A DNA stretch of 64,000 nucleotides, from positions 1,450,001 through 1,514,000 of the forward strand of contig NZ_JAKKUT010000002.1 of NCBI RefSeq assembly GCF_029582805.1. Direction: 5' to 3'. How positions within the stretch are numbered: the first letter of the stretch is position 1; every line of letters begins with the position of its first letter. Below, one piece after another: positions 7,746 to 29,249 of the stretch. This stretch comes from Candidatus Synechococcus calcipolaris G9. Lineage in GTDB: Bacteria; Cyanobacteriota; Cyanobacteriia; Thermosynechococcales; Thermosynechococcaceae. The notes below the pieces were generated by a model, which was given only the letters and a program-made list of their open reading frames with translations, searched no databases and had not been told where the DNA came from. The position numbers and the translations under genes were made by a program.

Positions 7746-8474
7746 TTAAGCTGCGGCCAAGGAGAAGGTTGAACCGTAGGCCTCCTGAAGATTTTGGGTG
7801 GTGATCACGTCGGTTTTGGCCCCCATGGCAATCAGACGCTTATTCAGGAGCAAAATGCGATCGTAGTAGTTGAGGCTCTCCCCTAGATCATGGTTAATCA
7901 CGAGTAGGGTTTTGGCCTGGGCCTTCAGTTCCTGGAAAATATCAAAAATAATATCCTCGGTTTTGCGATCCACGCCCGTAAAGGGTTCGTCAAAAATCAA
8001 GAGATCGGCTTCTTTGGCTAGGGCTCGGGCAATGAATACCCGCTGCTGTTGGCCACCGGATAGTTCACCAATTTGGCGATCGCGCAGATGATACATCCCC
8101 ACCCGCTCTAGGGCTGCCTTTACCGTTTGCTGTGATTGGACGCTAGTCCGCCGAAAGAGACCCGTTTGCACCGTCCGAGCCATCATCGCCACATTCCAAA
8201 CCGTGATCGGATAATCCCAATCAATGTGCGATCGCTGGGGCACATAGGCCACCCGGCCTAACTGCTGTCCTAAAACTTTCCCTTGGAACATTGCCTTGCC
8301 CGCCACCGCACGAATGAGACCGAGCATGGCCTTGACCATCGTACTTTTCCCCGCACCATTGGGGCCAACCACCCCCACCAGTTCACCGGCGGGAACCTGA
8401 TAGTTAATCTGCTCTAGGGCAGCAACACCACGATAACTGACGGATAATTCCTGAACCTGCAACATGGTAGGCAA
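7746..8474 (-). CDS. Metal (Mn/Zn) ABC transporter ATP-binding protein
   Basis: The 242-residue ATPase has Walker A GPNGAGKST (residues 37-45), a Q-loop in AYVPQRSHIDWDYPITV, signature LSGGQQQR, Walker B LLIFDEPFTGVD and the switch His in VINHD. The Q-loop sequence with IDWDYP is characteristic of ATPases for Mn/Zn/Fe ABC importers (MntA/SitB/ZnuC). It is the first gene of a two-gene operon with the permease. A palindrome, ATGAA-A-TTCAT, lies 36-46 bp upstream of the ATG and could be an operator for a metal-responsive regulator. No solute-binding protein gene is adjacent. Confidence 0.92.
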   Translation of the reverse strand: MPTMLQVQELSVSYRGVAALEQINYQVPAGELVGVVGPNGAGKSTMVKAMLGLIRAVAGKAMFQGKVLGQQLGRVAYVPQRSHIDWDYPITVWNVAMMARTVQTGLFRRTSVQSQQTVKAALERVGMYHLRDRQIGELSGGQQQRVFIARALAKEADLLIFDEPFTGVDRKTEDIIFDIFQELKAQAKTLLVINHDLGESLNYYDRILLLNKRLIAMGAKTDVITTQNLQEAYGSTFSLAAA

Positions 8475-24344: not shown

Positions 24345-24350
24345 TATAAT
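24345..24350 (+). promoter_or_regulatory. Perfect -10 box (TATAAT) for the spore-coat-U gene
   Basis: TATAAT lies 89 bp upstream of the SCPU ATG. No good -35 hexamer sits at 17 bp; TTGCCA is too close at 11 bp. A 12-bp perfect palindrome follows directly, so this promoter may be regulated. Confidence 0.45.
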
Positions 24351-24362
24351 TGCCTATAGGCA
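24351..24362. promoter_or_regulatory. 12-bp perfect palindrome abutting the -10 box
   Basis: TGCCTATAGGCA is self-complementary over all 12 bases and begins one base after TATAAT, near the expected transcription start. A repressor bound here would block initiation. No known operator consensus is recognised. Confidence 0.4.
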
Positions 24363-24438
24363 TCAGTACTGTTGAATTTATCTCGATTCAATATCTCTAA
24401 CTGTTCCTCTGTTAGTTAAGGAAAAAGGATTATTTGCT

Positions 24439-25011
24439 ATGGCTGGAATGCTCTCTCTGTTGATCAAGCGGCTGACAGTGGGCCTGTTTTTAGGGGCTGC
24501 CGCGGGTGTATTACCCATGCTCTTTGCTCAAGAAGCCAAAGCCCAAACAGCAAGAGCCGATCTTCCGATAAGTGCTACAGCGAAAAATAACTGTCTTGTA
24601 ACAACTAAAACAGCGATCGCTTTTGGAAATTATGATCCAATTGTCGCCAACGCCACAACTGCTGCTAAAGCTAATGGCCAAATTACTGTCAAATGCTTAC
24701 CCAATGCTCAAGTTGAAATTGCTCTAGGTGCAGGAGCGAACGGTGACGGAACAACTTGCTTGTCACGAGAAATGAATGGGCCAGATGATGACGCAAAGTT
24801 ACCCTACAAACTCTATACCGATGCTGCTTTCACGACTGAATGGGGTTGCGGTGTAAACGCCATTGATCATACTCCTACCAACGCTAGACCAGTTCCTTTC
24901 ACAGTTTATGGCGAAATTCCTGCGGGTAATGATCCGCTAATCGAAGCTGTTTTAGATACTCTGACTCCTGGGGCCTATAACGATACGGTTGTTGTAACCG
25001 TGACATTCTAG
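24439..25011 (+). CDS. Spore coat protein U (SCPU) domain protein, archaic chaperone-usher pilin-like subunit
   Basis: The 190-residue protein has a signal peptide (basic LLIKRLTVGLFLGAAAG, cleavage expected near AKA-QTARA, about residue 36) and then an SCPU domain. This has an N-terminal strand ending in NNCLVTT, IAFGNYDPI, paired Cys residues (KCLPN, TTCLSRE, WGCGVN), VPFTVYGEIPAG, and a C-terminal beta strand VVVTVTF. SCPU proteins are subunits of Csu-type (archaic) chaperone-usher fimbriae used for adhesion and biofilm. A periplasmic chaperone gene follows at 15 bp, but no usher does. GCGATCGC occurs once in it. Confidence 0.85.
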   Translation: MAGMLSLLIKRLTVGLFLGAAAGVLPMLFAQEAKAQTARADLPISATAKNNCLVTTKTAIAFGNYDPIVANATTAAKANGQITVKCLPNAQVEIALGAGANGDGTTCLSREMNGPDDDAKLPYKLYTDAAFTTEWGCGVNAIDHTPTNARPVPFTVYGEIPAGNDPLIEAVLDTLTPGAYNDTVVVTVTF

Positions 25012-25025
25012 ACTTAGTTCCGACA

Positions 25026-25817
25026 TTGATCTCACCTTTAGTTCTTAGAACTCTAACAAAGCCAGGGATGCTTATACTGTGGGCATTCCTGGTTCTTGCT
25101 GGTCAATCAGTCTTTGCCCAGTCCCAAGAATTTTATTTAAGTGCGATTCAGGTTTTCCTCTCGCCCCGTCAGCGAACCACACTATTGACGATCAACAATA
25201 CGGGAAGTGGTGCCATTGATTTTGAAATTAGTGCCGAGAAGTGGCAACAAACTGAGAATGGCATTGATCAACTATCCCCAGCGGATGGTGAGATCGTTGT
25301 TTTCCCCCTCATTTTGAATGTTCCACCCGGAGAAAGTCGTAATATCCGCATTGGTACGCGCCAACCTCCTAGTACGGTTGAGGGAACCTATCGATTGCTG
25401 GTCGCCGAGTTACCTGCCGCCGACATCCCGGAAACCCAAGCTACCGGGCCGCAACTGCGAATTATTAAACGCATGAGTTTACCCGTCTTTATTGAACCCC
25501 TTAATCCCATTGCCACGGCTGAGATTGTTAATACAAACATTCAAAATGGACAGCTAGGCTTCACGATCCGGAATACTGGCAATGTTCATATTCAGACCCT
25601 CAGTATTGCTTTGACCGGGCAAACGGCCGATGGGGAAATGTATTTTGAAAGGAACCTAGACTCAGTTTATGTCCTGGCAGAACGGGAGCGATCGTTTTCC
25701 CAGGTAGACCTCCCCCAAGCAGGCTGTGCCCAAGTCAGGCAAGTCACAATTCGTCTTGGCAGCCGCCGCCATCCCCTTTCGACCCAACTTCCCACACCCA
25801 ATGGTATTTGTCGCTAG
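25026..25817 (+). CDS. Periplasmic fimbrial chaperone (PapD/CsuC-like)
   Basis: The 263-residue protein starts at a TTG (25026) 15 bp after the SCPU gene; the alternative is ATG 25068. A signal peptide ends at about QSVFAQ. An N-terminal Ig-like domain follows with QVFLSPRQRTTLLTINNTGSGAIDFEISAEKW and PPGESRNIRIG, then a second beta domain (NTNIQNGQLGFTIRNTGNVHIQ). This is the layout of chaperones that donate a strand to pilin subunits in chaperone-usher systems. Its pairing with an SCPU protein supports the Csu type. The usher and tip genes that normally follow are replaced by an Rpn nuclease gene. Confidence 0.8.
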   Translation: MISPLVLRTLTKPGMLILWAFLVLAGQSVFAQSQEFYLSAIQVFLSPRQRTTLLTINNTGSGAIDFEISAEKWQQTENGIDQLSPADGEIVVFPLILNVPPGESRNIRIGTRQPPSTVEGTYRLLVAELPAADIPETQATGPQLRIIKRMSLPVFIEPLNPIATAEIVNTNIQNGQLGFTIRNTGNVHIQTLSIALTGQTADGEMYFERNLDSVYVLAERERSFSQVDLPQAGCAQVRQVTIRLGSRRHPLSTQLPTPNGICR

Positions 25818-25853
25818 TCTTGAGAGTCAACCATCAACTAGAGTCCTCAATAA

Positions 25854-26720
25854 ATGCGTCGCGACTCAATCTTTTATAAACTCTTTCAACAATTCCCAAA
25901 CCTTCTTTTTCAACTCCTAGACCCACACCCTGAACACACAGCGGAGTATCAATTTGCTTCCGTTGAAATCAAAGAAACCAGCTTCACCATTGATGGCGTT
26001 TTTATTCCTCCTGAAAATCAATCCCCTGCGATCGTTTACTTTTGTGAGGTGCAATTTCAAAAAGACGAAACCCTCTATGAGCGTCTCTTTTGTGAGTCTT
26101 TGCTGTACTTCTATCGCCATCGCCCTCGATTTTCAGATTGGCAAGCGGTAATTATCTATCCCTCTCGCAAAACCGAACAGAGTGGCTATACCCCCTACGC
26201 AGATTTGGTGAATAGCTCCCGTGTTCACCGCATTTATCTTGATGAACTGCCCCACCCGGATCAACTCCCCCTAGCCCTAGCTCTCATGCGCTTAACCATT
26301 GTGGATACAGACCATGTGCCGGCGATCGCTCGGCAGATCCTTGGGCGAAGTCACCAGGAACCGGAACCCAGCCAAAAAGCGATAATAGACTTACTCACCA
26401 CAATCCTCGTGTATAAATTCACCCATTTAAGTCGTCAGGAGATTAACCAAATGTTAGGACTCACGACAACCGCGCTCAAAAATACCCGTTTTTACCAAGA
26501 AGCCAAAGAAGAAGGGCGGGAAGAAGGAGAACTCATTGGTGAGCGCACCCTTATTTTTCGCCAACTCCACCGTCGCCTAGGAATCATCCCGACGGATCTG
26601 CACAACCAAATTGAGTCCCTTGCGATTCCCCAACTTGAAAATCTGGGTGATGCCCTCCTTGACTTCACCACCCTAGAAGACCTAAAAATCTGGCTAGAAA
26701 ACCAAGATGGCTTAGGCTGA
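25854..26720 (+). CDS. Rpn-family recombination-promoting nuclease/putative transposase (DUF2887) with DUF4351 C-terminus
   Basis: The 288-residue protein starts MRRDSIFYKLFQQFPNLLFQLL, the usual DUF2887 opening. Its PD-(D/E)xK core is visible as IDGVFIPP (Asp) and VYFCEVQFQ (E-x-Q in place of ExK), then LYERLFCESLLYFYRHRP. The last ~50 residues (RQLHRRLGIIP through LEDLKIWLE) match DUF4351, often fused to Rpn nucleases. Rpn proteins are DNA endonucleases that stimulate RecA-independent recombination; they are multicopy in cyanobacteria and mobile-like. It begins 36 bp after the chaperone gene, where an usher would be expected. Confidence 0.88.
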   Translation: MRRDSIFYKLFQQFPNLLFQLLDPHPEHTAEYQFASVEIKETSFTIDGVFIPPENQSPAIVYFCEVQFQKDETLYERLFCESLLYFYRHRPRFSDWQAVIIYPSRKTEQSGYTPYADLVNSSRVHRIYLDELPHPDQLPLALALMRLTIVDTDHVPAIARQILGRSHQEPEPSQKAIIDLLTTILVYKFTHLSRQEINQMLGLTTTALKNTRFYQEAKEEGREEGELIGERTLIFRQLHRRLGIIPTDLHNQIESLAIPQLENLGDALLDFTTLEDLKIWLENQDGLG

Positions 26721-29199: not shown

Positions 29200-29249
29200 T
29201 CACTATAAAATGTAAGTATGGGAAATCATTAGGTTTACAATAACCTTCT

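What the first reader, a model, noticed from the sequence alone, without database searches (positions are those of the whole stretch)
24345..26720. Chaperone-usher remnant: SCPU subunit and chaperone without an usher, followed by an Rpn nuclease
Archaic chaperone-usher operons normally encode subunit(s), chaperone, a large outer-membrane usher and a tip protein. Here only one SCPU subunit and one chaperone remain, and an Rpn-family nuclease starts 36 bp later. Either the usher was lost with the nuclease marking the junction, or the pair works with an usher elsewhere, or it has a usherless role. The chaperone still has its signal peptide and complete length, so recent decay is not obvious.
Basis: partly seen in the sequence, partly recalled or inferred. 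Interest (0 to 1): 0.5.

Follow-up and report, generated by a model that had tools for sequence, protein, structure and literature searches.

The report
Half of a scattered pilus operon
A cyanobacterium carries a fibre protein and its chaperone here, while the pore protein needed to export the fibre and a likely tip protein are encoded elsewhere on the same chromosome, so this looks like an ordinary adhesive-fibre system whose genes have been scattered rather than a leftover that lost its pore.

Summary
In detail: an SCPU pilus subunit (24439-25011), a PapD-type chaperone (25026-25817) and, 36 bp on, an Rpn-family DUF2887 protein (25854-26720), with no usher at the locus. The "usher lost" reading does not hold. 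The same genome (G000) has two usher loci elsewhere. Usher B, about 105 kb away on the same contig, groups with the usher of an intact SCPU-chaperone-usher-SCPU operon of Thermosynechococcus-group relatives. The window pair matches that operon's first two genes (42-49% and 53-59% identity), and a solitary SCPU gene about 646 kb away resembles its fourth (51-59%). So an archaic, Csu-like operon appears spread over three sites. A second chaperone-usher system of another lineage is split in this genome too. The Rpn gene belongs to a dispersed multi-copy family and is probably a chance neighbour. A subunit-chaperone pair with its usher elsewhere is already published for Synechocystis 6803 (cccS-cccP, slr0019). 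New are the lineage, the three-way split, and both systems of one genome being split. Main doubt: the assembled usher B changes reading frame at a run of seven C, so whether this system still makes a fibre is open.

The parts
24439..25011 (+). SCPU-domain pilus subunit (190 aa), counterpart of the first gene of the operon in relatives
   Evidence: PF05229 E 2.5e-27; 42-49% to the first-gene SCPU proteins of G020, G014, G022, G028, G018; a profile of 14 rows finds CsuA/B, CsuE and an SCPU protein (8cio) in PDB
24544..24591 (+). putative N-terminal donor strand (residues 36-51, after the signal peptide)
   Evidence: alignment A2: the window subunit and seven other first-gene-type rows share an extension before the first Cys; the solitary G000 SCPU and four operon fourth-gene rows lack it; cleavage site judged by eye
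25026..25817 (+). PapD-type periplasmic chaperone, complete (263 aa from TTG; ATG at 25068 may be the start)
   Evidence: PF00345 E 1.1e-9; 53-59% to operon chaperones of six relatives; CsuC is the only PDB molecule at E<=0.001; CsuC Arg89 and Pro59 lie opposite R123 and P94 (positions counted by hand)
25854..26720 (+). Rpn-family DUF2887+DUF4351 protein; neighbour, judged not part of the system
   Evidence: second full-length place at G000:C2:484906-485502, 63% identical

Best explanation
The pair is the subunit-chaperone part of an archaic (sigma, Csu-like) chaperone-usher operon whose genes have been scattered by rearrangement. The usher (usher B) and an SCPU protein without a donor strand (likely tip or cap) are separate genes on the same contig. 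Inferred working: both window proteins go to the periplasm; the chaperone holds the SCPU subunit by donor-strand complementation; the complexes go to the distant usher, where the N-terminal strand of each incoming subunit replaces the chaperone strand and a thin fibre grows. Shown here: domains, kinship of each part, gene positions, the presence or absence of the extension, the archaic arginine. Inferred: that the parts still act together, that the solitary SCPU is the tip, any surface function. Unsettled: whether usher B is made as one protein.
For: Own genome: 2 SCPU, 2 chaperone and 2 usher places. In G018, G020, G014 and G022 the order is SCPU1, chaperone, usher, SCPU2; in G016 the contig starts just before the chaperone and the rest is in place. 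The G000 parts match these operon genes: SCPU 42-49%, chaperone 53-59%, usher pieces 52-60%, solitary SCPU 51-59%. Quick trees put the window chaperone and the usher piece with these operon genes, and the chaperone apart from the second lineage. In 291 genomes of the class, 39 of 44 with both families have a chaperone within 5 kb of an usher hit, so linkage is the usual state and the split here is derived. Flanks: crtP-crtB are together in 28 of 28 loci and glyA with the gene on its other side in 24 of 26, own locus counted, but CU genes lie beside them only in G000. Precedent for a split: Synechocystis 6803 (PMC4390875).
Against: Usher B is in two reading frames that meet at a C7 run, so in the assembly it is not one open gene. 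18 of 20 G or C runs of exactly seven in 142 kb of G000 lie inside long stop-free stretches, which argues against a general fault, but of 9 runs of eight or more only 3 do, and a local error cannot be excluded. No shared upstream word links the scattered genes beyond shuffles. The chaperone and usher trees differ on where the second G018 operon (L067) falls: the usher data mildly reject (AU p 0.046) the chaperone arrangement, the chaperone data do not reject (p 0.114) the usher one. The N-terminal usher piece is as close to L067 as to the main operon. The solitary SCPU may instead descend from solitary paralogues such as L083 (unresolved). No expression or phenotype data.
Confidence: 0.75

Rival explanations
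1. Decaying system: the operon was scattered and its usher is already inactivated, so the window pair is a remnant that has not yet decayed.
For: Frame break in usher B. Decay is seen in relatives: at the operon site G024 keeps only SCPU2 and 177 aa of usher, between genes that I read as carB and valS; G022 has a second usher in three pieces. Several g5 genomes have no match to the three families (G011, G026, G027), and G004 only a weak SCPU match with a stop inside.
Against: Window subunit and chaperone are full length without stops, and the two usher pieces still align over their length at 52-60% with one break only.
Confidence: 0.3
2. Usherless role: the subunit and chaperone act without the usher, for instance in building other surface structures.
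For: In Synechocystis 6803, cccS and cccP mutants are described as non-motile with no or fewer thick pili (PMC4390875, section 12 read), yet the ushA mutant stays motile and flocculates (PMC6755745, passages).
Against: That precedent probably belongs to the other lineage (second G000 chaperone 27% to the window one); in the relatives read the window lineage sits beside its usher, apart from solitary paralogues in G014, G016 and G020; the subunit has an extension fit for polymerisation.
Confidence: 0.1
3. Cross-use: the window subunits are exported by the intact usher A of the second system.
For: Usher A is one open frame of 882 aa while usher B is broken.
Against: Usher A belongs to a distant lineage, 21-27% to the usher B pieces, with its own subunit and chaperone. 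Recalled: chaperone-usher recognition is usually cognate.
Confidence: 0.07

Closest known systems
Thermosynechococcus chaperone-usher cluster (CL-1 FFX45_06900-06920, PMC7005997, passages)
   Same: Same gene kinds: chaperone, usher, SCPU subunits; the window parts match the genes of such clusters in g5 relatives
   Different: There the genes are contiguous; here they are at three sites
Synechocystis 6803 cccS-cccP with usher slr0019 elsewhere (PMC4390875, section 12 read)
   Same: Subunit-chaperone pair with the usher elsewhere in the genome
   Different: Probably a different chaperone-usher lineage; its likely counterpart in G000 is the second system (C2:771k pair and C8 usher), judged by kinship to G224, which fits Synechocystis but is unnamed; no Synechocystis 6803 sequence was compared
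Csu pili of Acinetobacter baumannii (CsuA/B, CsuC, CsuD, CsuE)
   Same: SCPU subunit with N-terminal extension; CsuC-like chaperone with the archaic arginine
   Different: Distant in sequence; neither of the two SCPU places in G000 is a two-domain tip like CsuE; genes not in one operon

Membership tests
Archaic (sigma) chaperone-usher system | Subunit with SCPU domain | tested here: met
   PF05229 E 2.5e-27; PDB relatives CsuA/B and CsuE; Foldseek best hit CsuA/B of a CsuC-CsuA/B complex
Archaic (sigma) chaperone-usher system | N-terminal donor strand on the polymerising subunit | tested here: met
   Extension present in the window subunit and seven other first-gene-type rows, absent in the solitary G000 SCPU and four fourth-gene rows; that it acts as donor strand is inferred
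Archaic (sigma) chaperone-usher system | PapD-like chaperone with the non-classical arginine (CsuC Arg89) and Pro59 | tested here: met
   Definition from PMC4654587 (passages; the arginine marks archaic and alternative chaperones, so it does not by itself separate the two); HMMER alignment puts window R123 and P94 opposite CsuC Arg89 and Pro59, counted by hand
Archaic (sigma) chaperone-usher system | Chaperone second-domain anchors (CsuC Tyr196, Arg174) | tested here: inconclusive
   The sequence alignment stops at chain residue 122; the model is moderate (mean pLDDT 71)
Archaic (sigma) chaperone-usher system | Outer-membrane usher of the same lineage in the genome | tested here: met
   Usher B pieces 52-60% to the ushers of six intact operons; its frame is broken in the assembly
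Archaic (sigma) chaperone-usher system | Genes in one operon (the usual arrangement) | tested here: not met
   Parts at C2:827k, C2:1367k and C2:1474k
Archaic (sigma) chaperone-usher system | Makes a surface fibre | not testable with these tools
   Needs microscopy or proteomics
Rpn family (neighbour gene) | Match to the family model above cut-off | tested here: met
   TIGR01784 67.2 bits, cut-off 52.1; nuclease activity untested

The most novel reading that the evidence does not exclude
One cyanobacterium has both of its chaperone-usher systems taken apart between chaperone and usher, and exports two kinds of subunit through unlinked ushers, one of them switchable or off through a C7 tract; the subunit-chaperone pairs would then be stand-alone modules that can share, or do without, an usher.
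Probability: 0.07. Interest if true: 0.5.

Novelty: new member of a known kind. Interest (0 to 1): 0.25.

Why it matters
It turns an apparent usherless remnant into a dispersed system and shows that an usher missing next door says little in cyanobacteria. If the scattered genes still work together, this genome is a natural case, beside Synechocystis, for asking whether subunit-chaperone pairs need an usher at all, an open point there because cccS/cccP and ushA mutants are reported to differ in motility.

Tried and rejected
Rpn as junction marker: rejected. The other full-length place is at C2:485k; of 25 relatives with a readable stretch upstream of crtP (27 loci, two cut at 25 bp), one (G006) has a related piece there; the window Rpn protein has no match among the ORFs of L009-L012.

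Shared promoter word: no pair of upstream regions exceeds its shuffles (lowest 40 of 200). CRP-type palindrome, consensus recalled: 8 of 10 positions before the window SCPU (18 of 200 shuffles as good) and before the solitary SCPU (16 of 200), 6 of 10 before the other three; only G224's subunit gene has 10 of 10, without a shuffle control. Weak, so not used. Promoter and terminator scans at chance level.

tRNA-Arg beside the solitary SCPU (L012:7304-7378): none in L009, L010 or L011, and the window's only tRNA is at 29249, so not pursued.

Poly-G run in the ushers as a switch: it falls in a Gly-Gly codon block and is broken or short in some relatives, dropped.

Structure: the chaperone model is moderate (mean pLDDT 71); its Foldseek list starts with CsuC but also holds other Ig-fold proteins, so it adds little. 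The weak UpsA match of the chaperone (18.9 bits, cut-off 130) was disregarded.

Full report
What is at the locus. The window carries an SCPU subunit gene (24439-25011), a PapD-type chaperone gene (25026-25817) 14 bp later and an Rpn-family gene (25854-26720) 36 bp after that, all on the + strand, between glyA (other strand) and crtP-crtB (the last three names are mine). The chaperone's Pfam match covers its first domain only, but the protein aligns over nearly its whole length with seven chaperones of relatives, and its predicted model, of moderate confidence, has CsuC as first solved match.

The rest of the system is in the same genome. The window lies in G000, contig C2; G000 has 3.30 Mb in 8 contigs. 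Searches of G000 found SCPU at two places, PapD_N at two and Usher at two. Besides the window pair there are a solitary SCPU at C2:827436-827951; usher B at C2:1367141-1369532; a second subunit-chaperone pair at about C2:771.1-772.6k; and usher A on C8, one frame of 882 aa. Usher B ends 104.9 kb, and the solitary SCPU 646.5 kb, before the window SCPU. The second subunit has no Pfam match; I call it a subunit because of its place before the chaperone and its similarity to genes in the same place in G224, G090 and G280.

Relatives show the parts as one operon. Of 58 genomes searched as relatives, G000 included, 9 have SCPU, 10 usher and 10 PapD_N matches. In G018, G020, G014 and G022 the order is SCPU1 (two copies in G014), chaperone, usher, SCPU2; in G016 the contig begins in SCPU1 with the rest in place; in G028 the operon is cut by contig ends. 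The window SCPU is 42-49% identical to SCPU1 of five relatives (39% to the extra copy in G014, 30% to that of a second operon in G018), the chaperone 53-59% to six (48% for the second G018 operon), the usher pieces 52-60% to six whole ushers, that of the second G018 operon included, and the solitary SCPU 51-59% to SCPU2 of seven genomes. SCPU1 proteins have an N-terminal extension, SCPU2 proteins do not, as expected for a polymerising subunit and a tip or cap; that role is inferred.

The site. In the family, crtP and crtB lie together in 28 of 28 loci, and glyA with the gene on its far side in 24 of 26, own locus counted in both; SCPU or chaperone genes of the window kind lie beside them only in G000. 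The genes upstream of glyA and of crtP differ between relatives. So the block sits at a loose joint between two stable pairs.

Trees (quick method). The chaperones split into two starred lineages; the window chaperone is sister to the operon chaperones with support 92. The usher piece falls with the same ushers but outside the second G018 operon (support 94). The usher data mildly reject the chaperone arrangement (p 0.046) and a pairing with the second G018 operon (p 0.031); the chaperone data do not reject the usher arrangement (p 0.114). One shared history is thus possible but not proven. The SCPU tree has long branches and leaves the solitary SCPU unresolved between the operon type and a solitary G018 paralogue.

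Usher B. Relatives' ushers match G000 in two overlapping frames that meet at L010 about 7995-8017, in a C7 run. In 142 kb of G000, 18 of 20 runs of exactly seven G or C lie inside a stop-free stretch of at least 200 codons in some frame, and 3 of 9 longer runs; usher B's is one of the two exceptions of length seven. A real mutation, a switching tract and a local sequence error all remain open. Both pieces are otherwise well conserved.

How usual is a split? In 291 genomes of the class, 53 have usher and 46 chaperone matches; 44 have both, and 39 of these have a chaperone within 5 kb of an usher hit (with the window chaperone added). Of the other five, G038 and G280 show part of an usher beside a chaperone at a contig end, G224 has them 63 kb apart, G259 on different contigs, and G000 has both systems split. 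Nine genomes have usher matches only and two chaperone only. Some linked genomes also have an unlinked extra: a chaperone in G014, G016, G020 and G253, an usher in G022 and G190. The search has misses, as itself shows.

Second lineage and literature. The second G000 chaperone groups with those of G224, G259 and G090, among others. G224 carries a full CRP-type palindrome before its subunit gene, which fits cccS-cccP of Synechocystis 6803, whose transcripts change most in a sycrp1 mutant and whose usher slr0019 lies elsewhere (PMC4390875, section 12 read). G224 is unnamed, so this is inference; against it, CccS is described there as an SCPU protein while the G224 subunit has no Pfam match. PMC7005997 (passages) describes an intact cluster in Thermosynechococcus CL-1 and its kin and its absence from three Japanese strains. 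Mechanism as drawn rests on passages of PMC9452303 and PMC4654587. Paper searches listed nothing that I recognised as a split cluster in this family; the library holds open-licence papers only, and I looked into six of those listed.

The Rpn gene. The family has one other full-length place in G000, 63% identical, and two partial ones. It is absent upstream of crtP in the relatives except for a related piece in G006. Nothing found ties it to the pilus genes.

Verdict. A real, mostly ordinary feature: a scattered archaic chaperone-usher system with a published precedent for the arrangement and an unsettled usher.

Noticed in passing
L011:6121-7584 (G000:C2 about 771.1-772.6k) and L009:5417-8065 (G000:C8): A second chaperone-usher system of another lineage, also split: subunit-chaperone pair on C2, usher on C8. 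A TPR gene runs divergently beside usher A; a similar-looking gene, not tested, sits before the usher in G171 and G090.
   Followed up: partly
L073:6601-7401, L074:6788-7588, L075:6712-7512: Solitary chaperone genes (39% to the window chaperone) in G016, G020 and G014, with no usher or SCPU match in the stretch read and beside a gene of 827-831 aa in each.
   Followed up: partly
L083, L080, L071, L085; G014:C1:493564-493933; G020:C1:1984472-1984654: Solitary or broken SCPU and usher pieces in several genomes of genus code g5, a sign of repeated decay of this system.
   Followed up: partly
L012:7304-7378: tRNA-Arg gene ending 58 bp before the solitary SCPU gene, on the other strand.
   Followed up: no
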